Of a stretch of 64,000 nucleotides of DNA, positions 14,981-59,958 are shown piece by piece (within the stretch, counting starts at the first letter, position 1; each line of letters opens with the position of its first letter). The translations under genes and the position numbers were made by a program. Source of the stretch: Trifolium pratense (lineage: Eukaryota; Streptophyta; Magnoliopsida; Fabales; Fabaceae); assembly GCF_020283565.1 (NCBI RefSeq), contig NC_060065.1:24664409-24728408 (forward strand). Direction: 5' to 3'. The notes under the pieces are model-generated. The model worked only from the letters and a program-made list of their open reading frames with translations, was not told the DNA's origin and did no database searches.

Positions 14981-17900
14981 CTAGTATCCGGACCCGTGCC
15001 AAGCACGGGTAAAAATATATTTATAAAAGAGTTAAACAATTTTTTTATCTCTATAAAAATAAAAATTATTTTTAGATACGGACTTCCATGATATGTATAT
15101 TAATTAATGGGTCATGTTAACTTGTGCCCTAAGGGCACATGTTAAGCTATCTAAATACAAAGAATTAAATATTTAGATAATTGAATATACCACAAGTTCA
15201 ATAAATTTTTTCCACATTTATCTTCTTAACATGTGCCCTTAAGGGCACAAGTTAACATTCTCCTTAATTAATTATCAATTATTCAAGATACCTTGTTAAT
15301 CTTGTTAATAATATATATGCTCTAAAAATAATATTACATGATCGATGATTAATCACTGCAAGATTATATTTTCTTCTCTGGTCTAAAAATATTGATCAGT
15401 TATAAAATAGTATTACTATATAAGAAGAATGCTTATTCAAACTAAATATAAATACACTTGATATATATTCAATGAAAATACTATATAATTGAAATTATGG
15501 TTTTAAAATGAAGTTGCGGATGTAGTAGTTACAATTGTGGTCATTGTCGTTGTTGTGAGGCGCATGGCAGATATGAAATAATTTTATATTTCCACAAATT
15601 ACTCTGGTAGCACCACTGTGACAATACACTATTTCCTCACATATATAGCACAATTTTAGTTTACTTCGTAAATACTAATTGAAAGGTGCTTGAAATACAA
15701 AGTTGAGAAACCGTCAAATGTAAATTTTTTCATTAGATCTAAAGTTGATTGAAATTTGAGTACTAAAATTTAAATTTTTGTGAGAAAATTTGAATAAATA
15801 TAGTTGAAATCGTCTGATGCAGTTGTTGATGTGGCCGCACACGGGATTGAAAATCACGCTGCAATTGCAGTGCGATGCAACTGTAAAGGCTACCATAAGC
15901 AATATTGCGGCACAATTGCGGACGTGGACCGCAATTTGAATCCATGGTCCGAATGGTTATTGCTCTTTTTTATCGTGGTTGTTGGTTGAATAGCAACATC
16001 ACTGCAGAAAAAATATGTTCCGAAAGTCCTGTAAAAAATAACGAATATTAAAATGAATAAAGAATGAGATATAAAAAAAGGTAAAGTAATGGTACTCAAT
16101 AGAGTTAATGGTCTTTTAAGCATAATTAAACTGGAAAAAGGAAAGAAAAAAGAAAGAAAAAGATAAAGTAATGGTACTCAAATATTCAGATTTACACCAT
16201 CTTCAAGTTTGCAAGTCCATAGTGGATAAAAGAAAGAAAAAAAAGGATTTTTATCAACACAACAGGGGCATATCCTATAAATTAATAAGATTATATTTCA
16301 TATGTAATTTCTTTAAATTGTGTAGAGATCCTTATGCAAATATTAATTGGAATTAATGAGTGAAAGAGAGTGCATCACTTGAACTTTGCAAGAGAGAAAA
16401 CTGACCAGACCCAATCATAGTAATCAATCTATATACTAACACTCGTTGGATATCCTCACCATGAAACAACAACATCAAAGCATATAATGAGAACTTAATA
16501 TGTTTAAAAAAAAATAGAACTTAATAAAAATGTCTTTTTAAGTTTGGAAAATATCATAGGCAGTCCTCAGCATTGAACTTAAATATAATAACAGGAAAAT
16601 TTGAAATTGAGTTATGGACAGAATATGAGCAAATTCTTCAAAACGGAAAAAAGAAGAGCCACATCAGACAATGAATAACATTATCATTTGAAATACCATA
16701 CCTTTGAATTTTCCATATCAGTTCATAGCTCTTAATACGCATGCGTGAATTAATATAGTTTTGTGTACTTGTTCTCTGCTTCATTCATTTGCAGTGACAC
16801 ATTGCCACATGAGTTAATATTAATAAGATATTCGTTCAAAGACAAACATCCACAATTTGGGGGTTAAGCAATTGTGGAAAATAAAATGTAGATCGATGAC
16901 ATACAACATTTTAGATAGGGATAATAAAATGGAATTTGCATAAATACATCTAAAGATTATCTGATGTAAACTGGTGTAAACTATCTGATGTAAACTGAAT
17001 GCAGTGAAAATCAGGGGAATGAGAATTGAGCTTAGACACATAAAAATAGTGGTTGAAACTTGAAAGACTAAAGATTTGTCCTAGCATTAACTAATTTCTT
17101 CAACATTTTACCCCTTCATTCCATTTTTCATATGGTGTACATGAGATGATATGAATGTTTCTTAAGATAACAGACATAAAACAATGACTCATATTCTAAC
17201 AGAAATTTTTTCTAGATTCTTATCTAAGGTGACTAAGTTGGTGACTCTTCCTTTTGCAGACTTCAGAGTCTTCCATATCAAGTTTGTAACTTCTTATGTC
17301 ATTACACTATAGTGCAATCAACCAATTGATTTCATATTGAGAGAAAAAACAACACCTACTGTAGTCTTAATTTATGAAGCATATGCATATAATTTGATCA
17401 AAAAGTAATAAAGAACCATAAATGCAAATATAATAACATCAAAACAGAATGCAGAATAAAAAAAATACTTGAAATCAAAACAAAAGGTAAAAAAGAAAAA
17501 TTGAAGAGTATATCCAATATAAAACTAAACAAAGATCATTGTTTGTGGCTTCCTCATTCACAGTCAAATTAACATTCCATTTATAGAACCATAAAACATA
17601 GTAAATAAAAAAGAGGAAGAAACTACTATTTACCATGTGGTCAACACTCTCAAGTCATCAAAGGTAGATCCTACGGGGATCATGCAATAATGGATTCAAC
17701 GAATATTTACTCATATATCTTTTATACTTGATAAATGAAGCCAAATCTGCCACAAAAGATAAAACTTAAAGTATGAAAGAAATGAAAAATAATAGAGGCT
17801 AGTATTCCCATTTGTCAGATGGAATCCTATTTTCCATTTGTATTTCATAAAAAAATGTGGTGTAATCCTACTAAATATATTACCGACAAACCTATACTAA

Positions 17901-19775
17901 TGACCATGTCAATATGATGTGATTTTCAGAGATATACCAATCATAACCAAATCATTTATCCGCATATACATACCAATAATTATTTTTGCAAATGTTGTGT
18001 ATTGCAATCCAAAGAAACTGGGACAAAAGAATATGATGCAAACATACCTTTTCATACTCTTTTCCTTCGTAGCAATGGTAAACTATATAAAAACGCTTTA
18101 ACTCGATTCCTGTAAAAAGATAAATCAAAATTACAGTGACAAGAAGCAAGCAAAAAAGTTGCAGTAAAAGCAAAATGAAAACAAAAAGATTGTCCCTCGT
18201 TTTGTTTATATTAAAATCATATATTAAACTATATACTATTAATCTCAACTTGTAGAACATGGTAAGCTTCTAAATGTGAATGTGGCCGAACATCATTTCA
18301 AATTGTGTGAAAAAGTACAATTATTTGTTTTGTCGGTCAATATATAGTCTAGATGTATAGATTAAAAATGTCCATGTTCCTCAAATAACATCATTGTACC
18401 ATGAAATGTATCAACAAAATGGTTAAAATGGACACCGAGAGTGAGGTATTTAAAAATAGGAACCATAAAAGAACTACCATATGCCAATGACCAACAGTCC
18501 AAATACACCAAGACATGACGATACACATAAATTTGAATGAATAAACCATTATAATCACAGACCTCTTCTTTCAATAATCAATAAATTATGTTACCGGGCC
18601 GAATAGTAAAGCACAATATGTAGATTAATCCTATAAACAAAGCCACACCATTATGCTTCAAAGGAGAAACCCGAATATTAAAATAAAAGATGAAATCAAA
18701 CTGCATTTGTAATCATTAAATTACAAACCAATATATTAAAAATAAAAAATAAGATTCGTTTATTCTAATTCTAATAAACCTTAAAAAAAGAAAAGAAGGG
18801 GAAAACAAACTTGCCTTGATTCCCTGGACCATGATGCATTCCATTCATGTATATGTACCACCACTAAACAGAGATTGGAAAAGCATGGTAACATGCTTAA
18901 TCGATGCTTAATTGTCTATGTACCATTTCATGTCTATCTACCTTCATGTCTAAATTGATGATTAAAATTAGAAAGGGCAAGATGGAAGGGAAAAAAAAGA
19001 CATGCGTTAAAATTGGAACGAAGAAACAAATAATCAGATATTGAAGACAAATACAATTGATTTGATGCAAAGTGCAAACACACCTTTCAAAATCTTTTTC
19101 TTCATAGCAATGGTGAACACAAATATGTAACCTTTAAGTCAATTTATATGACGGGAATAGTTAAAATTACAGAACAAAAAGCACCCCGATTGAAGGAGAG
19201 AAAAAAAACAATTGTAGAAATCAAACAAATCAATAACCAAAGTCGAGATTCTTATGATTCCATACTTCTGAAAACAAAAACACAGAGCGAACAAAATATC
19301 AAAATGAAAACGAAAACATATTCACTTGTTTGTACCGTATGACAAAGCGAACGAAGACGACACATTGGGACTGTGGCGATTTGAGGACTAAGACCGCGCA
19401 AGGAAGACAATGACAGGGAGTGATGTGAGAAGACATGCTGGGGAGGGCGATGCTACAACGTGAAGAGGACAACCACCCTGCGACGTGAGGAGAAGGTGGA
19501 GCGGCGTGAGGACGACGACGGCACTGTGACGGTGCGAGGAGGGAGATGATAAAAAAGAGTGAGAGAGATGAGGAATTTCAATTGCCTCTAGGAGAAAAAT
19601 TGACGGTGGGATGCAAAATTTTAGGCCGAAAAGTATTCCGAATCAATTTCCAATTAAACAATGAGCATTAAAATTCATAATTATATTAAATGTTAGGAAT
19701 GAGGTTGAATTAGGAGAGGAGAGAGAAAGGGAAATAAGTCTGGCTTTTTACATATTATAGATTATAGATTATAGA
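14981..19775 (-). mobile_element. Helitron, minus orientation, 4.8 kb, non-autonomous
   Basis: On the minus strand the 5' terminus is TCTATAATCTATAATC at 19775, preceded by A. The 3' terminus is the hairpin CCCGTGCTTGGCACGGG (plus 14993-15009), a short spacer, and CTAG at 14981, followed by T. TC start, hairpin, CTRR end and an A|T host site are the Helitron pattern. No Rep or helicase frame was found. Content: a small MITE at 15113-15260, a legume-type repeat rich in TTGCGG blocks at about 15500-15950, an imperfect direct repeat (around 18040-18170 and 19075-19190), and a GC-richer block at 19350-19620 near the 5' end that may have been captured. No gene can be named. Confidence 0.82.
15113..15260. 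mobile_element. Small MITE with 30-bp inverted ends
   Basis: The left end ATGTTAACTTGTGCCC continues to a complementary GGGCACATGTTAAG, and the right end mirrors it almost perfectly at 15226-15258. Each end is itself a near palindrome, so the element folds into a double hairpin. A decayed relative appears at about 59705-59915. No clear target duplication. Confidence 0.7.
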
Positions 19776-28965: not shown

Positions 28966-29628
28966 GGCATGTTTGGATAAGTTGCTTATCAAAAACAGCT
29001 TATAAATAAATAAGTTTTTATATATTATTATAAGATGGTTTATGAAAAAAACAGCTTATAAAAATACAGTTTTGTTAATAGAAACTTATAAATTAACATA
29101 AAATCTTACTATTTATTTGTATAAGTTCAAAAATAATTTGGGCCTACAGTGTTATTTTTTGTCTTATATTGTCGTGTTATGTTCGGTATTTATATTTTAC
29201 TGACCCTAGGTGTTTCATCTAGTATTGCGTGAGGCTGCGTGAGGCTGTGGTGTGGCTTCTATTTCAATTCATTCCCGGTTAGTATAGATTGTTAGGATTT
29301 AGTGGATTCATAAGTCATGAGTAATTTGAGAGCTTATTATTTTATTTATTTGAGTTTGCATACTTTAATTTGATAGTGGATAGTTGCGGTGTATTATATG
29401 TGTCACTATTGCCTTGTTGAATTGGGATTAGTTTATTTTTAAGCTTATACAAACAGCTTATGCAATTTTTATGTATTATTATAAGTTTGTCAAGGTAGTT
29501 TATGATAAAATAGCTTATAAAATTACAATTTTTACTAGTGTGAACTTATAAAATAACATAAAACCTAATTTATATTGAATAAGTTGTTTGTATAAGTTCA
29601 AAAATAAGCTAATCCAAACGGACCCTAA
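28966..29628. mobile_element. MITE-like element with TTTGGAT-type inverted ends
   Basis: The left end GAGGCATGTTTGGATAAG and the complemented right end AGGGTCCGTTTGGATTAGCTT match in the core GTTTGGAT. Inside, AGCTTATAAA and AACTTATAAAWTAACATAAA are repeated near each end. Ends of the form GGGTCCGTTTGGAT are common in Harbinger/hAT-like MITEs. No definite target duplication. The right end is part of the triplicated unit that follows. Confidence 0.5.
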
Positions 29629-41699: not shown

Positions 41700-44600
41700 T
41701 CTATAATCTTAATCTTAATACTATACATTTGAGGCTTATTTTCTAAGCTCTCATTTATTGTTCATTTTCAAATGCTTTGCTCACATTCATCCTCACACAA
41801 CCATATTAAAAGCATACTTTAAAAAGGAAATATTTCAAATTCAAATAATAAAATTCCAAACATACAATTATAATTATAATTAGTATAATATAAATGAAAT
41901 ATAATAAATAAATCACAAATATATAACACATAAATAAATAAATTATATTATAAAATATTATATATTAAATTTCGTGAATAATCGATATTCAAAGTCAATT
42001 TATTTTTTTAATAAATTTAAGTAATAATTAACCAAATTTGTTTAAATATTATAAAAATATAACCAAGTTTAAATTAATAATATATATTTATATTTCAAAT
42101 AAAGTACATATTTATGAAAGATTATGGAAGAAAAAAATTTATTCACAAATTTTTTTTTCATGATTTTTTTTTCTAATAAAAAACGAATTTAAATACTAAT
42201 TTTCATATTTAAATTATTATTTTATTATTATTTCAAAAGAAAATAATTTTTAAATCGAAATTATTATTTGAAAATAATTTGTACATTAATAGCATTAAAT
42301 TGACTTCAATATTTCGAGATTTTTGGCTTTTTTTGGCTTGCTTAGAAAGTTGTTATAATTTTACTACCTAAATTAAAATTTTCATTGTTGTCAAATTTTG
42401 CTTATAATAAAGTCATTGTTTGTGTCTTGATTCAAATTCAAATTTCGTATCACAGATTTATTCAATATATAAAAGGTAGTATAAATCATGTGCATAGAAC
42501 ATTCCTAAAATATAATATTATATGTTGATTTATTTTTATTAGGGTAATTTAAAAGGAAACATTTAATTTCAAGTGATTGATATTGAAAAAATAAAGAAAA
42601 AAATTAAAAACATATTCTAAAAATTGTAGTCGGTTTATATATTTTATATAAATAAATTATTTGTTAAATTATTTTTATAATTAAAAGTAATAATCACGAA
42701 ATTATTTAAAAATTATAATAATTTTTTCAAAGTTAATTTTAGTATTGCATTATAAGCATTTAATTTTCATGAGATTTTTTGCTTCTTTCTAATGTTTGTG
42801 TGTTAAATATTAAATTTTCTACAAAAAATCATAAGATGACATTCACCAAAAAAGGAATCAATATATTTGTTATTAATCGGTTTAATTACATATTATGGAT
42901 AAAGTTACTTATATACCCATGTTTTTCCCTATATAAATGGTCTTTGGTTGAACATTCAAATCACACATTTTCCATCTCTTTTCTCTTTAGCTATTTTCTT
43001 TGTATTATTTTCAATTTTTCTATTTTCAATTTTTCTATTATCGATATTCTTCTTAATCTATATATTCATCATTCTTTTCACTTTTTGCAGATGTGGAACC
43101 CAAAAGAAGAATATAAGTGATATGTGAACTAGGGTTAAGTGATTGTTAATCATAATATATGAGTTTTAAGTGATTGTTAATCTTTCTCACAAGTATGAAT
43201 GTAAATTAATTTTAAAGGTGTATTGTGTATTTTTTTTATATATAGAAAAGATGTAATATTTCTACCGTAAATATTATTTTACAGCTTAAGCAATGTGTTG
43301 CTTTGGTTTGAAAGATTATGTTATTGCTTTAGTATAATTAACTTTCATCTTTTTATTTATTATGATTTTTCTTTAAGAGTCTCATACATATATATCATAA
43401 GAAAAATTATAAAACGATGTTGTCATGAAAATGTGTTGTGTATATATAATAAACTATAAAATATTTTATATGAATTTTCATGTTATAAAATGAATTTGTT
43501 TTTTTTTTTAATGAATTGAAATAAATAAGCGAAATAAAATTTAAAATATTTTATAGGAATTCTCATACAGGATGTAACAAAGTAAAAAAAATATATTGAA
43601 TTGAAACAAATTATATTTTATATGAATTCAAACTAATTTATAAAAATAAATAAATTTTAAATATTTTATATGAATTTTCGTGCAATATATGTAACAAAGT
43701 AATGTTAAATAAAATTAAATAAATAAACGAATTTAATTATAAAAATATATAATATTAAATGTTTTCTTTGTTAATTTTTTTATAATTGAATGAATTTTTA
43801 TTTTTCTCATACATAAATAACATTAAATTGATTCCATGAAATTATTGAATTCCATTTTTTGATCCGAAATTATTGGCTTCCTTTAATAGATTGAATATTG
43901 AATTTAATGAATAGATCCATCCCGCAGCAAAATATAACACAGAGGAAAGGCAGTAGAAGACAACAATGTTCACAACACGTTAAAAACAAAATATTTTCTG
44001 TCAACCTGTGCAATCGGTTACCCGGTAAAGAAAGAAAAGAATTTTAAGTTTCAATGCTCCATACGTATGACTTTCACTAAAAAAAGTCAAACATAACATT
44101 GCGTTTAATTTGCATACTTAAAAAAGAAATAATTCAAATTGTTATTATCACAAATTTGTTTTCCAATAATTTGAAAACTTGAATAAATTAATTATTTTTG
44201 GTTGCAGGAATTTTTTTAACAAAATACAAGTTTAATTTTTTGTGCTTTTTTTTAAAATATGTTTTTATTTTAAACAAAAATTATTATAGTAAGGAAATAA
44301 AATGAATGAATTTATTTGTTGTTGTTGTATATATATATATATATACATATATATAATCCTTTATGGTAAAATAAAATATGATTGTACCATATTAATTTTT
44401 TTTCCTATTTTGAAAATGTAGTATCCCGTCCAATGATCGACTATTTAAGGGGATCAATTCTACCGTTCACTTGTGGGGGTCAATTTAAAATTAGAGTTTT
44501 TTTTTTTTCTCCGAGAGGAATCAAACCTGAGCCCTTTGAGATGGGCATACTTCAAAGTCTCTAGCCAACATCATTATGTGAGTTTGTACTATATTAATTA

Positions 44601-46311
44601 ATATTACTAAAGAAATACCGGAAACATTTATAATTTATGTGCAATTTTTTTATAATTTAGATATGATTTATATTTACTACCGGAAACCATCAACTACACA
44701 CGCTTAAGATACCGTGCAAAGTTATTTTCTTAAATAAATTATTTTTTTTGTATAAAAGAAATTTCATTAATACCGGTAAAAAAATCTTTTATATAGAAAA
44801 TAGAAATTTTAACATCATCACAAACTAAATGCATACTCACCATCATCTCTTTTGATATTTACTAGACCAATAAGAAAAAAATTCTAAATAAAAAATCAAC
44901 AATGAATTAGTAGCAATCATTTGTGTATAATTTAATTTTTACAACGTCTATAATCAACAATGAATTATCTGTACTTTTCGTTTAAAACTTGAGGTTGACA
45001 CAAAATCATTTGTTGGAGTTTTGAATTAGCACAAAAGAATAGTATGATATATGTCTATATACAACTATACTACCAAAAATTATACAACCACACTTTTTAG
45101 TACAATATACAAACTCGAAATAATTCATTCATGTTACTAACTCGACTCATCTTAAATTTTGAATTATTATAATCTTAATCTTAATCTTAATACTATACAT
45201 TTGAGGCTTATTTTCTAAGCCTCATTTAATGCAAATTTTCAAATGCTTTGCTCACATTCATCCTCACATATTTGTATTTATTGCTCAATTTCAAATGTTT
45301 TGCTCACAATCATCCTACAATATTTGTATTGAATATAGATATTTTAAAAAGGAAATATGTTAACTAATTTTTTTTCCGAGATTTGTCACAGCATCTGTAT
45401 TATGACCGAGATTTGTCACTAATTGTAGGATATACTATAAAACAGGAATATATGAGATTGCTCACTAATAATATGTAGTTTTTTTTTTCCGGAAATTGTT
45501 ATTAATTATTTATATAATTTTTTTTTACACAAAAAATTCAAATAATCAAATATATAATAATATAATAATATATAAAAAGGAATTGATTATTTACATTCAA
45601 TACAAATTGATATTGATAGGCATAATTTTTTTTTTCGGCAATTGATTATTCTATATATTGACATTCATATATTTGTCCATTTAATTTAATTTAATTTTTT
45701 TTTTCCGGAAATTTGTCACAACATCTGTATTATATTGATAGACATAATATATAGTTTTTTTTTCGGAAATTGTTATTAATTATTTATATAATTTTTTTTT
45801 ACACAAAAAATTCAAATAATCAAATATATAATAATAATAATATATAAAAAGGGAATTGATTATTTACATTCAATACAAATTGATATTGATCGGCAAATAT
45901 GTAATTATGTTTATAAAAAGTAATATTAATGTGGTGATCCTATTTCATAGCAATCAAAGCTGTCAAATTGTGGCACAATAGTATTAAAAAGGAAATATGT
46001 GGGGAAGATTGTTGCTTATAGTTTTTATGCTTTTTTTTTTTGAATCGCAAATATGTGGGGATGGTATGGATAAAGTCATTGTTTGTGTCTTGATTCAAAT
46101 CATGTGCATAAAACATTCCTAAATTTTTATTAGGGTAATTTAAAAGGAAACATTTAATTTGACCAAATTACTCATATGTCCTTTTTTCACTATATATAGG
46201 ACCTTAATCTCAACCCTAAAACTCATCATTTCTCAATTCTCTTCTCTTTAGTTATAGTTATATCTCTTTGTTTATTTTCATTGTTTTTTATTTACTTGAA
46301 TTTTTAAGAAA

Positions 46312-47792
46312 ATGCCTCCAAAATATAATTATATTTCTGAAATTTCTCCATCCAAAGAAACATGGAATGTATTGGTTAGAATTGTTCGCATGTGGTTTGT
46401 TAAAGATATGAATAGAGATGTGCTGCCATATTCTTTAGAAATGATTTTGATGGATAAGAAGGTTTATTCACATCTTGATTTTCAATTTATTTTTTAAATT
46501 TTTTAAGCAATCATATCTATTTTTTTTTTTTTTTGTGTGTATTCTAGGGTGAAAAGATCCATGCAACAGTTCGAAGAACATTAATTTACAAATATGAAAA
46601 GGAACTCACTGAGGGCCATGTGTATTCCATAAGCAACTTTAGTGTTGCCACTAATGTGGGATCATATAGAACCACCAATCATGCCTATAAAATTAATTTT
46701 CAATTTGGAACTAAAATCAAAAAATTTGATGACAAGTTGATACCTGCTAATATATACATGATCAGTGAACCTCATAAGATTTTTAATGATAACTATGATA
46801 CCGATTATTTGATAGGTTTGTCTATAATATATACTTAGCATAAAATTAAATAAACTTTCGTTTGTCTATAAAACTAAGACTTTCGTTTGTCAATTATTTA
46901 TTTATTTTTTTAATAAATAAATAATGTAAAGTACTCCAAATTTTTAACCCAATACATCAAGTTTTTTTCTTTTATTTTTATTTATATTTTGGGATGGAGA
47001 GAGTAACTTATTAATCTTTATGTTTTGTTTAGTTATCGATTTAAGTGTATTCTACGTGGCCATTATGTGGACAAGCTGATTAATTTTTTAAAGTCTGATG
47101 CATCCGACAGTACATGTGTTGTATTGCTTTTTGGAAGGATGAATTTTTGGAAAGGTATCACATAACCCTCACCGTGTAATTTTAATAAGGCTTCGATGCT
47201 TAAACAAAATTCAACATAACTAAATTATAATTCAGGTATACCTACTGTTCAGAATTTCGGACAATATACAAGGGTGTTATTCAATCCAAATATTGATGCC
47301 GCTGCAGAATTGAAGCAAAGGTTTATAGTTTTCTCCTATTTACAGTATATACACGGAGTAGTTTGGAATGCATTTTATGTTCACTTAATAAAATATGTCT
47401 TTTATATCTATAGAATGCTGGACAGAACAATTTCTAAGCCTCATTCGATATATGCAATAAATGAAACTACAAAAGCACATGTATTGGATCAGTGGGTGTA
47501 CAAAACAATTAGACATACTCTATCAACCCTTGGTTTATGTGCAATGGTAACCATTACTGATATTGATTTGTTTGTCTATTTTCATTTTAGATTTATGAAG
47601 TTGTACCTAAGTTGTCACAATTAAATATTGCAGGGGTCGGTGTACGCTATATTGGGCAAAGTAGAACATTTGGAACCTAACTGCGATTGGTGGTATTTAT
47701 CCTGTGTATGCAATACCAAAGTGATTCCTTATGATAATATGTATTATTGTCAAACATGCAGTAGACGTGTTTTAATTGTTAGTCAAGGGTAA
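46312..47792 (+). pseudogene. RPA70-like single-strand DNA-binding protein gene, copy 1, truncated
   Basis: Replication protein A large-subunit-like genes are typical Helitron cargo; they bind single-stranded DNA. Exons proposed: 46312-46461 (ATG, MPPKYNYISEISPSKETWNV), 46548 to 46815 or 46819, 47033-47154, 47236-47320, 47414-47546, 47634-47792. They cover a first OB fold, the second-fold piece CILRGHYVDKLINFL..CVVLLFGRMNFWKG, the strand VQNFGQYTRVLFNP, and a Rep_fac-A_C-type zinc region (LSCVCNTKV..YYCQTC) ending at TAA. The join of exons 2 and 3 does not keep frame with the standard donor, and a segment usual between the folds is missing. The C-terminal OB fold is cut off. Probably non-functional. 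Confidence 0.78.
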
Positions 47793-48189
47793 ACATTTAT
47801 TTTTTAAAATTTATATCAAAAGAAAATGTGTTTATTTATGGGTCATTCTAATATATCTAATGAAAGCATATATTAAGTTTAATTTAATAGTACTTTATGC
47901 TCATAAAATACAAAAATTTTAATATGAGATGTGTGAGCTCATGTAGCACAAATCCGTTATTACTTTAAATGAGATTCACCGTTTGATGATATATTTTTGT
48001 TAATGGTGTCAATAAATCGTAAGTTTGATTTCCTAAAATTTGACCATTAGTTTAGATATCACGAAAAGAAATTATATGAGTTATTTGATTTTCTAAAAAT
48101 CGACCATTATTTTTTATCATGCGTTTTTTGTTACTCTATTCATCATAATTTTTATTTATGTTGTAAACAAAAATAAGTAAATTTTTAAA

Positions 48190-48225
48190 GGTTTGCCCCC
48201 GTGCTTGGCACGGTTATCATACTAG
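48190..48225 (+). other. Helitron 3' hairpin terminus of unit 1
   Basis: Stem CCGTGC/GCACGG with a TTG loop, then TTATCATA and CTAG. In unit 2 the stem is one pair longer (CCCGTGC/GCACGGG). Confidence 0.85.
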
Positions 48226-51200
48226 TACTATACATTTGAGGCTTATTTTCTAAGCTCTCATTTATTGTTCATTTTCAAATGCTTTGCTCACATTCATCTT
48301 CACACAACCATATTAAAAGCATACTTTAAAAAGGAAATATTTCAAATTCAAATAATAAAATTCCAAACATACAATTATAATTATAATTAGTATAATATAA
48401 ATGAAATATAATAAATAAATCACAAATATATAACACATAAATAAATAAATTATATTATAAAATATTATATATTAAATTTCGTGAATAATCGATATTCAAA
48501 GTCAATTTATTTTTTTAATAAATTTAAGTAATAATTAACCAAATTTGTTTAAATATTATAAAAATATAACCAAGTTTAAATTAATAATATATATTTATAT
48601 TTCAAATAAAGTACATATTTATGAAAGATTATGGAAGAAAAAAATTTATTCACAAATTTTTTTTTCATGATTTTTTTTTCTAATAAAAAACGAATTTAAA
48701 TACTAATTTTCATATTTAAATTATTATTTTATTATTATTTCAAAAGAAAATAATTTTTAAATCGAAATTATTATTTGAAAATAATTTGTACATTAATAGC
48801 ATTAAATTGACTTCAATATTTCGAGATTTTTGGCTTTTTTTGGCTTGCTTAGAAAGTTGTTATAATTTTACTACCTAAATTAAAATTTTCATTGTTGTCA
48901 AATTTTGCTTATAATAAAGTCATTGTTTGTGTCTTGATTCAAATTCAAATTTCGTATCACAGATTTATTCAATATATAAAAGGTAGTATAAATCATGTGC
49001 ATAGAACATTCCTAAAATATAATATTATATGTTGATTTATTTTTATTAGGGTAATTTAAAAGGAAACATTTAATTTCAAGTGATTGATATTGAAAAAATA
49101 AAGAAAAAAATTAAAAACATATTCTAAAAATTGTAGTCGGTTTATATATTTTATATAAATAAATTATTTGTTAAATTATTTTTATAATTAAAAGTAATAA
49201 TCACGAAATTATTTAAAAATTATAATAATTTTTTCAAAGTTAATTTTAGTATTGCATTATAAGCATTTAATTTTCATGAGATTTTTTGCTTCTTTCTAAT
49301 GTTTGTGTGTTAAATATTAAATTTTCTACAAAAAATCATAAGATGACATTCACCAAAAAAGGAATCAATATATTTGTTATTAATCGGTTTAATTACATAT
49401 TATGGATAAAGTTACTTATATACCCATGTTTTTTCCCTATATAAATGGTCTTTGGTTGAACATTCAAATCACACATTTTCCATCTCTTTTCTCTTTAGCT
49501 ATTTTCTTTGTATTATTTTCAATTTTTCTATTTTCAATTTTTCTATTATCGATATTCTTCTTAATCTATATATTCATCATTCTTTTCACTTTTTGCAGAT
49601 GTGGAACCCAAAAGAAGAATATAAGTGATATGTGAACTAGGGTTAAGTGATTGTTAATCATAATATATGAGTTTTAAGTGATTGTTAATCTTTCTCACAA
49701 GTATGAATGTAAATTAATTTTAAAGGTGTATTGTGTATTTTTTTTATATATAGAAAAGATGTAATATTTCTACCGTAAATATTATTTTACAGCTTAAGCA
49801 ATGTGTTGCTTTGGTTTGAAAGATTATGTTATTGCTTTAGTATAATTAACTTTCATCTTTTTATTTATTATGATTTTTCTTTAAGAGTCTTATACATATA
49901 TATCATAAGAAAAATTATAAAACGATGTTGTCATGAAAATGTGTTGTGTATATATAATAAACTATAAAATATTTTATATGAATTTTCATGTTATAAAATG
50001 AATTTGTTTTTTTTTTTAATGAATTGAAATAAATAAGCGAAATAAAATTTAAAATATTTTATAGGAATTCTCATACAGGATGTAACAAAGTAAAAAAAAT
50101 ATATTGAATTGAAACAAATTATATTTTATATGAATTCAAACTAATTTATAAAAATAAATAAATTTTAAATATTTTATATGAATTTTCGTGCAATATATGT
50201 AACAAAGTAATGTTAAATAAAATTAAATAAATAAACGAATTTAATTATAAAAATATATAATATTAAATGTTTTCTTTGTTAATTTTTTTATAATTGAATG
50301 AATTTTTATTTTTCTCATACATAAATAACATTAAATTGATTCCATGAAATTATTGAATTCCATTTTTTGATCCGAAATTATTGGCTTCCTTTAATAGATT
50401 GAATATTGAATTTAATGAATAGATCCATCCCGCAGCAAAATATAACACAGAGGAAAGGCAGTAGAAGACAACAATGTTCACAACACGTTAAAAACAAAAT
50501 ATTTTCTGTCAACCTGTGCAATCGGTTACCCGGTAAAGAAAGAAAAGAATTTTAAGTTTCAATGCTCCATACGTATGACTTTCACTAAAAAAAGTCAAAC
50601 ATAACATTGCGTTTAATTTGCATACTTAAAAAAGAAATAATTCAAATTGTTATTATCACAAATTTGTTTTCCAATAATTTGAAAACTTGAATAAATTAAT
50701 TATTTTTGGTTGCAGGAATTTTTTTAACAAAATACAAGTTTAATTTTTTGTGCTTTTTTTTAAAATATGTTTTTATTTTAAACAAAAATTATTATAGTAA
50801 GGAAATAAAATGAATGAATTTATTTGTTGTTGTTGTATATATATATATATACATATATATAATCCTTTATGGTAAAATAAAATATGATTGTACCATATTA
50901 ATTTTTTTTCCTATTTTGAAAATGTAGTATCCCGTCCAATGATCGACTATTTAAGGGGATCAATTCTACCGTTCACTTGTGGGGGTCAATTTAAAATTAG
51001 AGTTTTTTTTTTTTTCTCCGAGAGGAATCAAACCTGAGCCCTTTGAGATGGGCACACTTCAAAGTCTCTAGCCAACATCATTATGTGAGTTTGTACTATA
51101 TTAATTAATATTACTAAAGAAATACCGGAAACATTTATAATTTATGTGCAATTTTTTTATAATTTAGATATGATTTATATTTACTACCGGAAACCATCAA

Positions 51201-54200
51201 CTACACACGCTTAAGATACCGTGCAAAGTTATTTTCTTAAATAAATTATTTTTTTTTGTATAAAAGAAATTTCATTAATACCGGTAAAAAAATCTTTTAT
51301 ATAGAAAATAGAAATTTTAACATCATCACAAACTAAATGCATACTCACCATCATCTCTTTTGATATTTACTAGACCAATAAGAAAAAAATTCTAAATAAA
51401 AAATCAACAATGAATTAGTAGCAATCATTTGTGTATAATTTAATTTTTACAACGTCTATAATCAACAATGAATTATCTGTACTTTTCGTTTAAAACTTGA
51501 GGTTGACACAAAATCATTTGTTGGAGTTTTGAATTAGCACAAAAGAATAGTATGATATATGTCTATATACAACTATACTACCAAAAATTATACAACCACA
51601 CTTTTTAGTACAATATACAAACTCGAAATAATTCATTCATGTTACTAACTCGACTCATCTTAAATTTTGAATTATTATAATCTTAATCTTAATCTTAATC
51701 TTAATACTATACATTTGAGGCTTATTTTCTAAGCCTCATTTAATGCAAATTTTCAAATGCTTTGCTCACATTCATCCTCACATATTTGTATTTATTGCTC
51801 AATTTCAAATGTTTTGCTCACAATCATCCTACAATATTTGTATTGAATATAGATATTTTAAAAAGGAAATATGTTAACTAATTTTTTTTCCGAGATTTGT
51901 CACAGCATCTGTATTATGACCGAGATTTGTCACTAATTGTAGGATATACTATAAAACAGGAATATATGAGATTGCTCACTAATAATATGTAGTTTTTTTT
52001 TTCCGGAAATTGTTATTAATTATTTATATAATTTTTTTTTACACAAAAAATTCAAATAATCAAATATATAATAATATAATAATATATAAAAAGGAATTGA
52101 TTATTTACATTCAATACAAATTGATATTGATAGGCATAATTTTTTTTTTCGGCAATTGATTATTCTATATATTGACATTCATATATTTGTCCATTTAATT
52201 TAATTTAATTTTTTTTTCCGGAAATTTGTCACAACATCTGTATTATATTGATAGACATAATATATAGTTTTTTTTTCGGAAATTGTTATTAATTATTTAT
52301 ATAATTTTTTTTTACACAAAAAATTCAAATAATCAAATATATAATAATAATAATATATAAAAAGGGAATTGATTATTTACATTCAATACAAATTGATATT
52401 GATCGGCAAATATGTAATTATGTTTATAAAAAGTAATATTAATGTGGTGATCCTATTTCATAGCAATCAAAGCTGTCAAATTGTGGCACAATAGTATTAA
52501 AAAGGAAATATGTGGGGAAGATTGTTGCTTATAGTTTTTATGCTTTTTTTTTTGGATCGCAAATATGTGGGGATGGTATGGATAAAGTCATTGTTTGTGT
52601 CTTGATTCAAATCATGTGCATAAAACATTCCTAAATTTTTATTAGGGTAATTTAAAAGGAAACATTTAATTTGACCAAATTACTCATATGTCCTTTTTTC
52701 ACTATATATAGGACCTTAATCTCAACCCTAAAACTCATCATTTCTCAATTCTCTTCTCTTTAGTTATAGTTATATCTCTTTGTTTATTTTCATTGTTTTT
52801 TATTTACTTGAATTTTTAAGAAAATGCCTCCAAAATATAATTATATTTCTGAAATTTCTCCATCCAAAGAAACATGGAATGTATTGGTTAGAATTGTTCG
52901 CATGTGGTTTGTTAAAGATATGAATAGAGATGTGCTGCCATATTCTTTAGAAATGGTTTTGATGGATAAGAAGGTTTATTCACATCTTGATTTTCAATTT
53001 ATTTTTTAAATTTTTTAAGCAATCATATCTAATTTTTTTTTTTTTTGTGTATTCTAGGGTGAAAAGATCCATGCAACAGTTCGAAGAACATTAATTTACA
53101 AATATGAAAAGGAACTCACTGAGGGCCATGTGTATTCCATAAGCAACTTTAGTGTTGCCACTAATGTGGGATCATATAGAACCACCAATCATGCCTATAA
53201 AATTAATTTTCAATTTGGAACTAAAATCAAAAAATTTGATGACAAGTTGATACCTGCTAATATATACATGATCAGTGAACCTCATAAGATTTTTAATGAT
53301 AACTATGATACCGATTATTTGATAGGTTTGTCTATAATATATACTTAGCATAAAATTAAATAAACTTTCGTTTGTCTATAAAACTAAGACTTTCGTTTGT
53401 CAATTATTTATTTATTTTTTTAATAAATAAATAATGTAAAGTACTCCAAATTTTTAACCCAATACATCAAGTTTTTTTCTTTTATTTTTATTTATATTTT
53501 GGGATGGAGAGAGTAACTTATTAATCTTTATGTTTTGTTTAGTTATCGATTTAAGTGTATTCTACGTGGCCATTATGTGGACAAGCTGATTAATTTTTTA
53601 AAGTCTGATGCATCCGACAGTACATGTGTTGTATTGCTTTTTGGAAGGATGAATTTTTGGAAAGGTATCACATAACCCTCACCGTGTAATTTTAATAAGG
53701 CTTCGATGCTTAAACAAAATTCAACATAACTAAATTATAATTCAGGTATACCTACTGTTCAGAATTTCGGACAATATACAAGGGTGTTATTCAATCCAAA
53801 TATTGATGCCGCTGCAGAATTGAAGCAAAGGTTTATAGTTTTCTCCTATTTACAGTATATACACGGAGTAGTTTGGAATGCATTTTATGTTCACTTAATA
53901 AAATATGTCTTTTATATCTATAGAATGCTGGACAGAACAATTTCTAAGCCTCATTCGATATATGCAATAAATGAAACTACAAAAGCACATGTATTGGATC
54001 AGTGGGTGTACAAAACAATTAGACATACTCTATCAACCCTTGGTTTATGTGCAATGGTAACCATTACTGATATTGATTTGTTTGTCTATTTTCATTTTAG
54101 ATTTATGAAGTTGTACCTAAGTTGTCACAATTAAATATTGCAGGGGTCGGTGTACGCTATATTGGGCAAAGTAGAACATTTGGAACCTAACTGCGATTGG

Positions 54201-54735
54201 TGGTATTTATCCTGTGTATGCAATACCAAAGTGATTCCTTATGATAATATGTATTATTGTCAAACATGCAGTAGACGTGTTTTAATTGTTAGTCAAGGGT
54301 AAACATTTATTTTTTAAAATTTATATCAAAAGAAAATGTGTTTATTTATGGGTCATTCTAATATATCTAATGAAAGCATATATTAAGTTTAATTTAATAG
54401 TACTTTATGCTCATAAAATACAAAAATTTTAATATGAGATGTGTGAGCTCATGTAGCACAAATCCGTTATTACTTTAAATGAGATTCACCGTTTGATGAT
54501 ATATTTTTGTTAATGGTGTCAATAAATCGTAAGTTTGATTTCCTAAAATTTGACCATTAGTTTAGATATCACGAAAAGAAATTATATGAGTTATTTGATT
54601 TTCTAAAAATCGACCATTATTTTTTATCATGCGTTTTTTGTTACTCTATTCATCATAATTTTTATTTATGTTGTAAACAAAAATAAGTAAATTTTTAAAG
54701 GTTTGCCCCCGTGCTTGGCACGGGTATCATACTAG
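48226..54735 (+). mobile_element. Helitron unit 2 of the head-to-tail array
   Basis: 6510 bp, nearly identical to unit 1 (shift about 6507-6512). It begins TACTATACATTTGAGG directly after the CTAG of unit 1, so it lacks the first 19 bases of the left end (TCTATAATCTTAATCTTAA). It ends with the hairpin and CTAG at 54735. Differences from unit 1 are few: poly-T lengths, single bases such as GGGCATAC/GGGCACAC, and one codon in the RPA-like gene. A second internal left end lies at about 51680. Confidence 0.85.
52824..54302 (+). pseudogene. RPA70-like gene, copy 2, truncated
   Basis: Copy of 46312-47792 with the same exon layout: 52824-52973, 53058-53325 (or 53329), 53543-53664, 53746-53830, 53924-54056, 54144-54302. 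Exon 1 differs by one codon (LEMVLMDKK against LEMILMDKK). It shares the same frame conflict and the same cut C-terminus, so both defects were present before duplication. Confidence 0.78.
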
Positions 54736-56960
54736 TATGTAATAAGCCAGACTTATTTGTCTTTCTCTCTCCTCTCCTCTCCTCATTCAACCTCATTCCT
54801 CACATTTAATGTTGATATACATTCAAATTCAATAGTTGTCCAATTACTTTGAAAAATGACCATAATTACTTTGAAAAATAATAGCTGTCCAATTTTTTCC
54901 ATAAACATTCCCCCGTGCTGTCCAATTTTTTCCATAAACATTCAATTTTTTATAATAAAATGGAATATGCCTTATATTCTTTTTTTTAAAACAATAATAT
55001 TCTAATATGCCTTATTTCAAAAAGGAATGAAATATGCCTTATATTAAATTGCCTACTTAAAAAGGAAATAATTCATAATGAAATAATTCTAATTAATTAA
55101 AATATTCGATTTAAAAATAATAATAAAAATATTTCATTTATTATTATTTCAACTTCAAATATTTTATTTTTTGACTAACTTCAAATAATTTTAAAAACCA
55201 ATTTTTATTTATTTATTTATTTATTTATGTGGATGAAATGATTTAAACAAAATGAAAAAACGTGAAAATAATATTTTATATTTTTTTAAAATGAATCATG
55301 GCTTGACCAAAAAAAAAAAAGAATCATGGAATTTTCTTTTTTGAAAAATATGTGATAATATATGAATGTTTTTGATTGTTGATGAATCATGTAATTTATT
55401 ATTTTGACTAATTGGTCATATTTGTTATTAATGATTTTAATTTCATATTAAAGACAAAATTATTCATATCTCCATTTTTTTTCTCTGTATATATATATTG
55501 TCTTTGTGTGAATACTACAACTCACAATTTTTCAAATCTTTTCTTTTGGTTATTTCTCTTAGTTATTTTCATTGTTATTTATTTACTTGAATTACTTGAA
55601 TTTTTAATTTATTCTCTCTTTTATCAATCATATTTGTTGTATTTATAATTTTCTTCAACTTTTTCTTCTTTATTCTATTATTTTGTTGATCATTCTCTCT
55701 TCTTCTATTTTTCAGGAATGTGATCATAAAGAAAGATATGGAACACGAGAAACAAAGTTGTTTTCATGGGTGAATGCAAGAATATTGAGAACATTTTGTG
55801 GGGCCTCAAATTAACTTCTTAATTTGGATGCTAATAGTGTTTATTCTTTTGCTTGATAGTGTAATAATCATATTAGTTGTCTTCATTGTTAATCATTTGT
55901 TGTAATGGGTTGAAGTACCTCTTCCTGCATCTTATTTTGATTTTGCCTATAAAAAAAAAAACTAAACCAAATTTGTTGTCAAATATTAATTAATGCTACG
56001 GTCACACTCTCTAACACACTCCAATAAAAAAATGTAGGAAGCATAAAAATGTAGGAAATCAATATCCGGGAAATCAATTAGGCATATAAAAGGTTAAATC
56101 ATCTGCAATTATCAAATGTAGGAAATCATGTAAAATTATTTAAAATCAAGACAAACAAGGTAACTAATTAAGGTAGTATCATTCTTATCAAAAAAAAATA
56201 ATTAAGGTAGTATCATCAGTTACTGCTATTAAGGTAGTCGCGAATTATTTTTGTCAAATGTGATATTCATTTAATGTGATTGAGTCTCTGAGCGATGTTG
56301 AATCGAATGAAATGAAAGCAATGGGTCAGAGAGCGATGAACCAAGGAAGGAACTTCGGTGAGAGCGATGAAGGAGAAATCTATACTAATGCTTAGGCACA
56401 TTGTGAGCCTTAAGCAAGAAGAAGAAAATTGCATTAACACAAAACTTGAGAATTTACAATGTGCTTACACTTATTTATTTTTACTAACAAATAAAAAAAA
56501 CATGATTTTTAAATTATTATAATTTTTTTTTTCTGTAAATTATTATAAATTTTTAAAATGTATTATAGTTATAGTTTAAACTAAAGAGAAATTTTGTTAA
56601 GAATGTGGTCTTATACGGTTATACCTGAGTTACATGTCAATTATTATACTTGCGTTTCTTAATTCTTAAAGGTTAAAATGTAAAAACAATACTCTCAATT
56701 ATCAACAAATTTAATATAATAATTATTTGTTTTAATCTCTATAATTATTATATTTGTTTTAATCTCAATTATCAACAAATTTAATACAATACTCTCAATT
56801 TATTTGTTTTAATCTCGATATAATAATTATTTGTAATAATTATTTTTAAAATGTAAAAACAACACTCTTAATTCTTATGGTTTTATTTTAATACTTAGAT
56901 GGGGACTTACTTAAGAATTTCTTTATATGGTTTAATTTTAAAAATGCATAAGATAATCCA
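54736..56960 (+). mobile_element. Third Helitron-like segment, 5'-trimmed, right end not found
   Basis: TATGTAATAAGCCAGACTTA at 54736 follows CTAG of unit 2 directly and matches the left end of the minus-strand Helitron at 19.75 kb, minus its TCTATAATC repeats; the CTCTCTCCTCTCC tract follows in both. At 55490-55710 it carries a leader like that ahead of the RPA-like genes, then TTTTTCAG and a short exon-like stretch, but no RPA coding sequence. The rest is AT-rich with a repeated ATTAAGGTAGTATCAT at about 56160-56215. Confidence 0.6.
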
Positions 56961-59958
56961 TCTATAATTTATAATCTATCATATGAATAAAGCCAGACCT
57001 ATTCATCTTTCTCTCTCCTATAATATACTTGCTTCTCATGCATTCTATTATCTGATGCATTTGACAATTAATTCATTTGTCTATAATAATTGCCAATAAT
57101 TTCAAATTATCTCTACACAAATGACCTTCTATAATTTTGAAATATAACTGATGCATTCTCTTTTTGTACTCATGTCTAATAATAAGTAATTAATTCTAGA
57201 AACATAGAGTATTTGGGTCACGCCTCATATGCCTTTTCCTTCCAATTTTCAAATTTATTTGTATTTCAAATTAAAATTCTAAATTTCTTTTTTGGACGAA
57301 TTTCAAAGCTTTCAAACATAAGGAACTTTTTTTTTAAAAAAAATAAAGAACCTTATTTTATTATTTTAAAACATGCTGTATTTTTTTTATTTTATAAATA
57401 GACCAAATAACAAGTCATGAAAATTGACATACACAAAAAAAAAAAAACTATACTTATTTATAATGCAACAAAAAAAAATTGTACTACAGGCTATTTTGGC
57501 ACTACCATATATATATATCATTAATTCATTATGTTGCACTAGCTTATTTGTACTACAAATATATATTTAGCATATTTTCTATTAATTTCTTTTAATACGA
57601 TTATTAAACCAATTAAAGAAAATACGTTTTTAGCATATTTTTTAATGCAAATACATTTTTCATTTCTATATTCATAATATCAATTAATTGATTGATATTA
57701 ATTAATTGATTCACTCATCAATAAAATAGAATGAATTAAAATCATATAAGGCAACAATTCAAAGAATTCTAATTCTAATAAATGTTTACTAGCTCATTTT
57801 TTCGAGCAAATAAAAAAAATTAAATTGAAATATATTTATTTGGGCGTAAATTAGCCACACGTTTTGTTTAATAAAAATGGAAATATCAATCTCTATAATT
57901 ATAGTAAATTCGAATTCAAAGAATAAAATAAAATCCTCTAAATAATTTTGTATTAATCTTTGACATAAAATAAAAAACTAATTAAAAGAAGTATTTATCT
58001 AAATGATTTTTTTTATATTGTAAGGAAAAGGTTTTTAATTTTTATATTGTAAATAAAAGCTTTTTAATAATTTTATTTTTAAAAAAACTATAGGTACATT
58101 AAATCAAAATATTTTTTATAAATAATTATAGAAACATTAATTTCTTTTTCTGAATACATTAAAAAAAAATTGACCGTAGTAGTATATATTTATTGACCGT
58201 AGTATATTTAAAATAGTTGGAAAATATGGTAATGCAATATATTTTCGGAAATGTTAAATATAGAATGAACCTCATAAATTAAGGCAATTTCAAAAATTAA
58301 GGGATTAGTAAAAGCTTGTGATGGTAAATGATTTCTCTATCGTAAATTCATATTACTCACTTATTTTCTATATATATATATATATGGTAGCTGGGATGCA
58401 TATGAAAATTACAAAGATCTCACTTATCTCACTTATGATTGATTGATTTTTATTTTTATTTTGTATAGCACTTTTGGTTTATGTGAGACATGTACTTTGA
58501 TATCTTTGGTCATATGGTAAGAATTTTAATTTGGTCTATGAATATCCTTTTTGTGTAGCTATTGTGTTTCTAATTGTTGTGGTTGAAATGTGTAGGATCA
58601 TACGTCTGAAATTTATATAGTGTTCGAAACTTTCTATTCCATCATCTTAATCTTTAAAGTTGGAAACTTTTCTTTTTCAATATCATTTCAATGTAATATT
58701 TTTATATATTGCAATGTATGTTATATTTTCACCATTTTCTTTGTATTTTTTCTTTTGCAGAAGGACTAAGATGTGTTCTTAGATTTTTTATTGGTAAGTA
58801 ATTTCATCAAATATTATTTGCAACTTTAACTTAAAAAGAATATTAGAAATAATTATTTTTCCATAACTTGCAGATATGATGGAGATATCGTTATTAAAAA
58901 ATTATCCGACGTAATTTAAAATCAATCGTAATCTCATATGTGATGTATCAAATAATATTCCTTCCATCTAACATAAAATAATGTTTTGATCTATTCGTTT
59001 ATGTACGCGGATTAATACATTGTTTGAGTAAAATTATTTCTTCTTTCACACACTAAAAGTTTGTCATATTTCATTATATCTTTCTTTTGTCACAAACTAT
59101 GTGCAATTTTTTTTTTAATTTCAAATATAATGACTTTGATCATTAAGATACCCCACATCAATTTTTCTTTTGTCACAAACTATGTGCAATTTTTAAATCT
59201 ATTTTATATGTAGATTTGTTTGGTAGAATGATGACGGACTCATCTAAGAGATGAGTTTAAGACATTGAAGAATAATTCTTTACATTTTTTAGTTTTGTTT
59301 GTCTTTTCAATTTGCTACTTTTACGTTTTGGAGATTTATGTTCAGTTGTTGCAATGCAATGTAATTTGATTTATGATGTAGACATATATAACTTTTTTTT
59401 AATTTCAATGTTTGTGTCGAATGCATTATTTATGATAATTTTTTATTACATAAGGTGGTTTTATTAATCAAGGCATAAGATATGCTAAAATGGGAACACT
59501 CGCACTGTCCAATAAAGTCATATAATAGAAAAGTTGAAGAAGAGGATCCCATCACAGTACATCGTGTTCCTGAAGTTAAACAACAACAACCCCAAGTCTC
59601 TTAAAAACTCAAAATTAGAAAAATTATGTCGCGCAATTAAATTAGTGTAGACTATTAATGTGTACGATTAAATAATAAAAAATTATGTCCGCAATTAGTG
59701 ACTATGGGTCATGTTAATTCTTAGAGTACATGTTAAAGAATCCAAATATCAAAATATTCTCTTCATTTTTGTGCATTTTTTTTTATATAATAAATTTTTC
59801 TGCATTTTATTTATGAAAATTTAAACTTGAATTAACCGCATGAATTTTAATAAAATATTTTTTTTATTTAAATCATTAAATGTGTTACATTAATTTTAAG
59901 GGAACAAGTTAGCATTTTATAACAACTCATGTCAATTTATCTAGAATATCGACAAGAG
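56961..59958 (+). mobile_element. Fourth Helitron left end and AT-rich body, right end not found
   Basis: TCTATAATTTATAATCTATC at 56961 follows an A and continues AAAGCCAGACCTATTC and a CTCTCTCC tract, as in the other left ends. The body has leader-like sequence near 58370-58500 and exon-like bits after TTTTGCAG (58760) and CTTGCAG (58873), none long enough to name. No hairpin plus CTRR was found before the gypsy LTR, so this element is probably truncated. Confidence 0.5.
59705..59915. repeat. Decayed relative of the 15.1-kb MITE
   Basis: GGGTCATGTTAATTCTTAG at the left and AAGGGAACAAGTTAGCATT at the right echo the ends of the 15113-15260 element. Divergent; borders approximate. Confidence 0.4.

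What the first reader, a model, noticed from the sequence alone, without database searches (positions are those of the whole stretch)
41700..54735. Head-to-tail Helitron array with two left ends per right end
Two 6.51-kb units abut so that CTAG of unit 1 is followed at once by the left-end sequence of unit 2, trimmed by 19 bases. Each unit has an internal second left end but only one right hairpin, giving an A-B-A-B order in which part A has no right end. The same trimmed junction recurs at 54735, where a different Helitron left end starts. Tandem Helitrons are known and can come from rolling-circle read-through; the repeated loss of the TCTATAATC block at two junctions suggests a specific joining step rather than chance.
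Basis: partly seen in the sequence, partly recalled or inferred. Interest (0 to 1): 0.75.

Follow-up and report, generated by a model that had tools for sequence, protein, structure and literature searches.

The report
Helitrons nested in Helitron left ends
Two near-identical copies of a jumping gene sit head to tail in this plant genome, most likely because each jumped into the very start of another jumping gene, at a kind of spot where this genome's Helitrons have landed repeatedly.

Summary
Two 6.5-kb units abut at 48225/48226 (CTAG|TACTATAC) and end at 54735/54736 (CTAG|TATGTAATAAGCC). Each has two left ends and one right end.

The trimmed bases are not lost but stacked at the array head: A|TCTATAA|TCTTAA|TCTTAATACTATAC (41700 on). 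This fits nested insertion at A^T just inside left ends: Y into Helitron Z at TCTATAA^TATG, X into Y at TCTTAA^TACT.

Support from the window's own genome:
- TCTATAA starts 73 of 80 Z-family left ends read (6 others are CTAG junctions, 1 is mutated). It precedes 1 of 53 X-family contexts, the one here.
- At least 15 of 193 Z-type left ends read CTAG|TATGTAA (12 loci, three kinds of inserted right end).
- Controls: 0 at the next A^T site genome-wide; 0 of 78 outer A^TC sites; 0 in family V (297 left ends).
- Array heads carry two or more heptamers at 7 of 8 loci, against 16 of 70 other left ends.

Two left ends per right end is a dispersed composite, a known kind. New is the fixed, recurrent target inside left ends. 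For X and Y alone, tandem duplication is not excluded; nor is assembly error without long reads.

The parts
41700..41706 (+). TCTATAA: left terminal heptamer of Helitron Z, cut off from the rest of Z (54736 on) by the array
   Evidence: Same heptamer starts the Z-like element W in the window and 73 of 80 Z-family left ends read in two samples; absent before 52 of 53 distinct X-family contexts.
41707..41712 (+). TCTTAA: left terminal hexamer assigned to Y (unit 2); the assignment of the two hexamers between X and Y is inferred
   Evidence: X-family left ends are A|TCTTAA(n)TACTATAC; 48 of 48 contexts with n of 1 or more are preceded by A.
41713..48225 (+). Helitron X (unit 1), TCTTAATACTATAC...CTAG, composite of parts A and B
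   Evidence: the outer 1500 bp at both ends compared with those of 11 other copies.
45173..45206 (+). Inner (B) left end of unit 1, three TCTTAA then TACTATACATTTGAGG
46548..46835 (+). DUF223 fragment in unit 1 (RPA-like, a common passenger of plant Helitrons; the link of DUF223 to RPA is recalled)
   Evidence: PF02721, E 1.7e-15.
48199..48225 (+). Right end of unit 1: hairpin CCGTGC-TTG-GCACGG (outer pair missing through T instead of G at 48214) and CTAG
48225..48226 (+). Junction CTAG|TACTATAC, read as insertion of X at TCTTAA^TACTATAC of Y
   Evidence: the only such junction among 53 distinct left-end contexts.
48226..54735 (+). Helitron Y (unit 2) from TACTATAC to CTAG
51681..51720 (+). 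Inner (B) left end of unit 2, four TCTTAA then TACTATACATTTGAGG
53058..53345 (+). Same reading frame as the DUF223 fragment, in unit 2
   Evidence: Identical translation; only the unit 1 copy was scanned.
54708..54735 (+). Right end of unit 2: hairpin CCCGTGC-TTG-GCACGGG and CTAG
54735..54736 (+). Junction CTAG|TATGTAATAAGCC, read as insertion of Y at TCTATAA^TATG of Z
   Evidence: one of 15 such junctions seen genome-wide.
54736..59918 (+). Helitron Z after its first heptamer, with an inner left end (Q) from about 56961; no right end found, homology to two right-end-bearing relatives (L130, L189) stops at 59918
14981..19775 (-). W, a Z-like Helitron with three TCTATAA heptamers and a right end CCCGTGCTTGGCACGGGTCCGGATACTAG|T, used as reference for Z

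Best explanation
The array is a stack of nested Helitron insertions. Helitron Z (left end TCTATAA TATGTAATAAGCC) was there first. Composite Helitron Y inserted by the normal A^T rule between its heptamer and TATG. A close relative X then inserted at the same relative place in Y, between TCTTAA and TACTATAC. Each event moves the host element's first 6-7 bases to the left of the newcomer, so short left-end blocks pile up at the head (TCTATAA, TCTTAA, TCTTAA) and each junction reads CTAG|T plus a left end without its block. Shown: the sequence structure, the family left ends, and recurrence of the Z-type junction at a fixed site. Inferred: that the transposase (RepHel) is drawn to resident left ends, perhaps because it binds and melts them; that X came from Y or a near relative; that a later start at the outermost TC and stop at the first right end makes elements with longer stacks.
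For: All bases missing at both junctions are found at 41700-41712. Z-family left ends start A|TCTATAA(n)TATG: 54 of 60 in one sample (the other 6 are CTAG junctions, none otherwise) and 19 of 20 in a second (the other has a mutated heptamer). The TCTATAA prefix precedes 1 of 53 distinct X-family contexts, the one here. Genome-wide, at least 15 of 193 Z-type left ends read CTAG|TATGTAA, behind three kinds of right end: 13 W-type, one V-type, one X/Y-type. Independent case L129: A|TCTATAA|TCTATTATTTATATATTTAGGAG...CTAG|TATGTAATAAGC, whereas 20 of 20 other V left ends read lack the TCTATAA prefix. Array heads have n of 2 or more at 7 of 8 loci against 16 of 70 other left ends (Fisher p 0.0006; against controls of the ACATATT subtype only, 5 of 20, p 0.004). 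Five heads were read after the prediction was written down: n = 2, 2, 3, 5, 3, and the 3 of C3:21.86 Mb heads a three-element array. Controls: 0 CTAG at the next A^T of the same left end genome-wide, 0 of 78 at the outer A^TC, 0 at the corresponding site of V, which has 297 left ends.
Against: One array head (L130, C5:22.26 Mb) has a single heptamer where at least two are expected; slippage could explain it but was not shown. Hexamer number also differs at inner left ends (3 against 4) without insertion, so stack length is not a clean count of insertions. For X and Y the sequence alone cannot tell n=1 plus n=1 nested insertion from an n=2 element duplicated in tandem with a 2-bp (TA) overlap. 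Two of 12 junction loci have no head identified (C5:32.87, C4:19.64 Mb). Seven of the eight Z-type heads were taken as a listed same-strand left end upstream (3.5-8.4 kb away), without reading through the body between; at C2:27.85 Mb a Q-type left end lies between head and junction (L171). Only L130 was read through. The X family shows one trimmed junction, this one; the V family none, so the hot spot is not general to Helitrons here.
Confidence: 0.78

Rival explanations
1. Rolling-circle read-through: a multimeric intermediate inserted once and gave the tandem units, with the left end trimmed during joining.
For: X and Y share the block TCA while 15 of the 18 places matched genome-wide have GAG, so they are close kin; head-to-tail Helitron junctions are discussed as rolling-circle products in the literature (PMC5876387, PMC2267711; passages read).
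Against: Circle junctions reported for Helraiser are precise CTAG|TC (PMC4778049 passages), not CTAG|TACT. It does not explain the Z heptamer and spare hexamer at the head, nor the same junction with a clearly different element inserted (L129). TCA is probably ancestral, since the 18th place, in a 98.8% identical relative, also has it, so sisterhood is not proven.
Confidence: 0.08
2. For the X-Y pair only: one Helitron inserted in Z, then the unit was duplicated in tandem by ordinary unequal exchange or microhomology-mediated repair.
For: CTAG|TA has a 2-bp overlap TA with the alternative flank; the units are close kin; other tandem duplications with 100% identical pieces lie in the window, e.g. 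29505-31803.
Against: Breakpoints fall exactly at the CTAG end and at an A^T site 6-12 bp inside the left end, the rule of the Z-type junctions at 11 other loci. X-Y divergence (7 of 5937 sites) is within the range among four other copies (3-8 of about 5940), so the split is about as old as the family's spread.
Confidence: 0.12
3. Assembly artefact.
For: No reads were available to me; the window holds other near-exact tandem repeats.
Against: Units differ at 7 sites scattered over 6.5 kb, and the Z-type junction recurs at 11 other loci on contigs C1 to C5.
Confidence: 0.02

Closest known systems
Fusarium FoHeli self-insertions with multiple 5' termini (PMC5148889; passages and sections 10 and 16 read)
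   Same: Same model: a Helitron inserts into another, the transposase starts at the leftmost 5' end and stops at the first 3' end, giving several 5' termini with one 3' terminus; short 5' duplications of 31-85 bases; a three-copy tandem read as insertion into a 5' end twice or rolling circle.
   Different: Those are non-canonical Helitron2-like elements; no fixed, recurrent target position inside the left end was described in what I read.
Maize adjacent and nested Helitrons (PMC2267711 passages; PMC3288121 passages and section 12)
   Same: Head-to-tail canonical Helitrons; consecutive insertions argued from different contents; preference of HelA to insert near or inside other Helitrons (cited there); multiple termini from nesting.
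   Different: The maize junction is CTAG|TC, i.e. insertion at the outer A^T (or at a G/T site); here it is 6-7 bases further in, and none of 78 outer sites read is preceded by CTAG.
Helraiser / Helibat (PMC4778049, PMC5876387; passages read)
   Same: AT targets with A+T-rich surroundings, circular intermediates, hairpin as terminator, Helitrons abutting other Helitrons.
   Different: Circle junctions are precise CTAG|TC; no left-end target hot spot in the passages read.
Tandem centromeric Helitrons attributed to rolling-circle amplification (Xiong et al. 2016, recalled; seen only through citation in PMC5148889)
   Same: Head-to-tail Helitron arrays in plants.
   Different: Mechanism there, as recalled, is amplification through circles; here nested insertion fits better. 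I did not see that paper.

Membership tests
Canonical plant Helitron (X, Y, Z, V, W) | 5' TC inserted after A | tested here: met
   48 of 48 X-family contexts with at least one hexamer are preceded by A; 5 of 53 have none. 20 of 20 V left ends begin A|TC. 54 of 54 heptamer-bearing Z left ends in the first sample begin A|TC.
Canonical plant Helitron (X, Y, Z, V, W) | 3' CTRR with hairpin, followed by T | tested here: met
   CTAG with hairpin. 43 of 43 right-end matches end CTAGT; the T was part of the pattern, but up to 3 mismatches were allowed and the 12 one-mismatch hits differ elsewhere.
Canonical plant Helitron (X, Y, Z, V, W) | RepHel transposase gene (autonomous members only) | tested here: inconclusive
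   Only 4 of the 14 stop-to-stop frames of 75 aa or more listed for 41000-64000 were scanned: DUF223 is the only hit above its cut-off. Read as non-autonomous members moved in trans.
RPA-carrying plant Helitron lineage | RPA-like/DUF223 sequence between the ends | tested here: met
   PF02721 E 1.7e-15 in part B, a fragment.
Rolling-circle multimer | precise CTAG|TC junction between identical units | tested here: not met
   Junction is CTAG|TACTATAC.
Nested Helitron insertion | host element interrupted at A^T with both host pieces flanking the insert | tested here: met
   TCTATAA at 41700-41706 and TATGTAATAAGCC from 54736; family left end TCTATAATATGTAATAAGCC. Same at L129. At L130 the expected extra heptamer is not there.
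Nested Helitron insertion | empty site in another accession | not testable with these tools
   One genome only.

The most novel reading that the evidence does not exclude
Resident left ends of some Helitron families act as insertion magnets: the transposase that binds a left end to start transposition also uses the first A^T inside it as a target for an incoming circle. Starting later from the outermost TC and stopping at the first right end then adds one heptamer or hexamer per cycle, so the repeat ladder at the 5' end of these Helitrons partly records past self-insertions. The V family, whose left ends show no ladder (20 of 20 read), also lacks the junctions.
Probability: 0.4. Interest if true: 0.72.

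Novelty: new variant of a known kind. Interest (0 to 1): 0.52.

Why it matters
Tandem Helitrons have been taken as footprints of rolling-circle replication. Here the base-level structure of an array tells a different story, serial targeted insertion into left ends, and gives a simple diagnostic: CTAG|T plus a left end lacking its first block, with that block found at the head. The recurrent site offers a testable handle on how Helitrons choose targets, how composites with several left ends and one right end arise, and why 5' terminal repeats vary in number.

Tried and rejected
Rejected: loss of 19 bases at each junction (they are at the head). Rejected: TCTATAA as part of unit 1's own left end (1 of 53 contexts). 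Rejected: a hot spot in every Helitron family (V: 0 trimmed junctions at up to 2 mismatches, against 297 left ends; X family: only the window's). X and Y looked like proven sisters from a private TCA block among 13 copies, but the genome-wide search found TCA also in a 98.8% relative, so I weakened that claim. Looking for Z's right end: none in the window; homology to L130 and L189 stops at 59918. Loose alignments between parts A, B, Z and Q are partly A+T-rich noise and were not used, apart from the terminal matches. A predicted-structure or protein-homology search was not made. Literature: the nine answered searches showed no paper describing a fixed target inside Helitron left ends; they cover open-licence PMC papers only, and not every one asked that question. 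Passages of PMC4683698 and PMC3789558 were also seen and added nothing decisive.

Not answered: whole-genome count of CTAG|TCTATAATATG; DNA search with Z's first 600 bases.
Full report
What is there. The window lies in a 413.6-Mb, 90-contig genome at C7:24664409-24728408; the size and the legume-like look of the genes suggest red clover, which is recalled and was not tested. At 41691 the sequence reads TTTTGCCTA|TCTATAATCTTAATCTTAATACTATACATTTGAGG. At 48225/48226 it reads CTAG|TACTATACATTTGAGG, and at 54735/54736 CTAG|TATGTAATAAGCCAGAC. The two units are 6507 and 6510 bp with 7 substitutions. Each has an inner left end (45191, 51705) and one hairpin right end.

Where the trimmed bases are. Read as nested insertions at A^T sites, nothing is missing: TCTATAA (41700-41706) is the first heptamer of the element that goes on at 54736 (Z), TCTTAA (41707-41712) is the first hexamer of unit 2 (Y), and TCTTAATACTATAC (41713) starts unit 1 (X). 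This was written down, before any data beyond the window were in hand.

Left ends in the genome. For the X family, 67 left ends match within 3 mismatches, reversed control 0. The loci fetched gave 53 distinct contexts; two three-mismatch places were not fetched and identical contexts were merged. 48 start A|TCTTAA(n), n from 1 to 6 under strict counting; 5 have n=0: the window junction, and L055, L059, L068 and L097, which look rearranged or mutated. TCTATAA stands before the stack in one only, the window's. For the Z family, 198 left ends match, control 0. Of 60 read, 54 are A|TCTATAA(n)TATG (n1 39, n2 9, n3 5, n4 1) and 6 are CTAG|TATG. A further 20 of the ACATATT subtype gave n1 14, n2 5 and one with a mutated heptamer. 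Together 73 of 80 have the heptamer. Five further heads were read.

A recurrent site. The pattern CTAG|TATGTAAWAAGCCAGACWTATTT with up to 3 mismatches has 193 matches; sorted by mismatch, 13 exact and 2 one-mismatch ones carry CTAG, and every two-mismatch one listed carries ATAA instead. Only about 100 of the 193 are listed, so 15 is a lower bound. The 15 junctions lie at 12 loci: C3:21.85 Mb has two in one array, and C4:7.86-7.91 Mb seems to hold three copies of one segmental duplication (near-identical flanks). Right ends in front of the junctions are W-type (with variants) in 13, V-type in one (L129) and X/Y-type in one, the window. In the same left ends, the next A^T site (TATGTAA^TAAGCC) has no CTAG junction genome-wide at up to 1 mismatch, and none of 78 outer A^TC sites read is preceded by CTAG. 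V left ends (297 at up to 3 mismatches) have no trimmed counterpart at up to 2 mismatches. Comparing 15 with 178 against 0 with 297 gives Fisher p 6e-7; with 12 loci in place of 15, 1e-5; the mismatch limits of the two searches differ.

Tests of nesting. If insertion is nested, the head must carry the host's block. At L129 a V element is preceded by TCTATAA and followed by CTAG|TATGTAATAAGC, while 20 of 20 other V left ends read start A|TCTATTA without that prefix. Heads of Z-type arrays have n of 2, 2, 3, 5, 3, 2, 2 and 1 at eight loci (for C4:7.86-7.91 the lowest of 2, 2 and 3 was used), against n of 2 or more in 16 of 70 left ends not known to be heads, in which two segmentally duplicated pairs are counted twice. 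Six of the eight heads are of the ACATATT subtype; against the 20 controls of that subtype alone the contrast is 7 of 8 against 5 of 20. The n of L116, L142, L157, L158 and L130 (three loci) had been seen before I framed this test; five heads were fetched afterwards and have n of 2, 2, 3, 5 and 3. The exception is L130 with n=1. Two loci have no head found (C5:32.87 and C4:19.64 Mb). Seven heads rest on position and strand, not on reading the body, and at C2:27.85 Mb a Q-type left end lies between head and junction (L171).

X and Y. Over 5937 sampled sites X and Y differ at 7; X differs from four other copies at 9 to 12, Y at 6 to 9, and those four differ from each other at 3 to 8. Where polarity can be read, 5 changes are private to X (one of them in a T run) and 1 to Y; the change at 43383 could not be assigned. 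A block TCA is shared by X, Y and one 98.8% relative; the 15 other places have GAG. So X and Y are close kin from a lineage that probably kept the older state, and they separated about when the family spread. That fits a short-range self-insertion during activity, but a tandem duplication of a single n=2 element is not excluded for this pair.

Two left ends per right end. By the listed positions of left and right ends, the A-B composite occurs with the same spacing at eight other places (C1:44.65, C2:23.79, C3:8.11, C4:41.88, C6:17.85, C6:28.66, C6:31.33 and C7:1.46 Mb) and with a longer gap between its two left ends at two more (C1:17.63, C7:1.88 Mb). B-type left ends also occur with unlike left flanks, so on their own (L042, L050, L060, L063, L064). 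The Z family shows a similar plan, with a Q-type left end inside (window 56961; L171). The published account (PMC5148889 section 16), starting at the outer left end of a nested pair and stopping at the first right end, fits. Part B carries a DUF223 fragment.

Mechanism. Shown: fixed junctions, block displacement and recurrence in the Z family. Inferred: RepHel bound to a left end nicks or melts it and joins an incoming CTAG end to the T of the first inner A^T; local A+T richness helps, in line with the target preference reported for Helraiser (PMC4778049 passages). Later transposition from the outer TC would add a block, giving the ladder; slippage also changes the number (inner left ends 3 against 4 hexamers), so the ladder is at best a partial record.

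Verdict. A real and informative array, best read as serial targeted nesting. The general idea (nested Helitrons make multi-terminus elements) is in print; the fixed inner left-end target was not found in my nine answered literature searches, which are limited to open-licence papers. On rereading the calls I corrected 74 of 80 to 73 of 80, the number of same-spacing composites from ten to eight, and the contigs of the other junctions; none of this changes the odds.

Noticed in passing
window 54736-59918 and 56961: Z has an inner left end (Q, degenerate heptamer stack) and no right end in the window; homology to two relatives stops at 59918, about 1 kb before their right ends.
   Followed up: partly
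window 19775-14981 (-): A Z-like Helitron (W) with three TCTATAA heptamers and a clean right end, about 4.8 kb.
   Followed up: partly
window 29505-31803: A 767-bp unit in tandem, pieces 100% identical over 1532 bp.
   Followed up: no
window 38427-39869: Tandem units of about 100 bp between near-identical inverted repeats of 340 bp (98.5%).
   Followed up: no
L053 (C2:35084763 -): Left flank TCTTAATCTTAATCTTAATATTA directly before TCTTAATACTATAC looks like another left end interrupted further in; its right flank was not read.
   Followed up: no
C1:6309258/6309600, C4:53715233/53715519, C4:19684786/19685172: Pairs of left ends about 290-390 bp apart, like the short 5' duplications described in Fusarium Helitrons.
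   Followed up: no
window 48214: A T in place of G, private to unit 1 among 13 copies, removes the outer base pair of its right-end hairpin.
   Followed up: no
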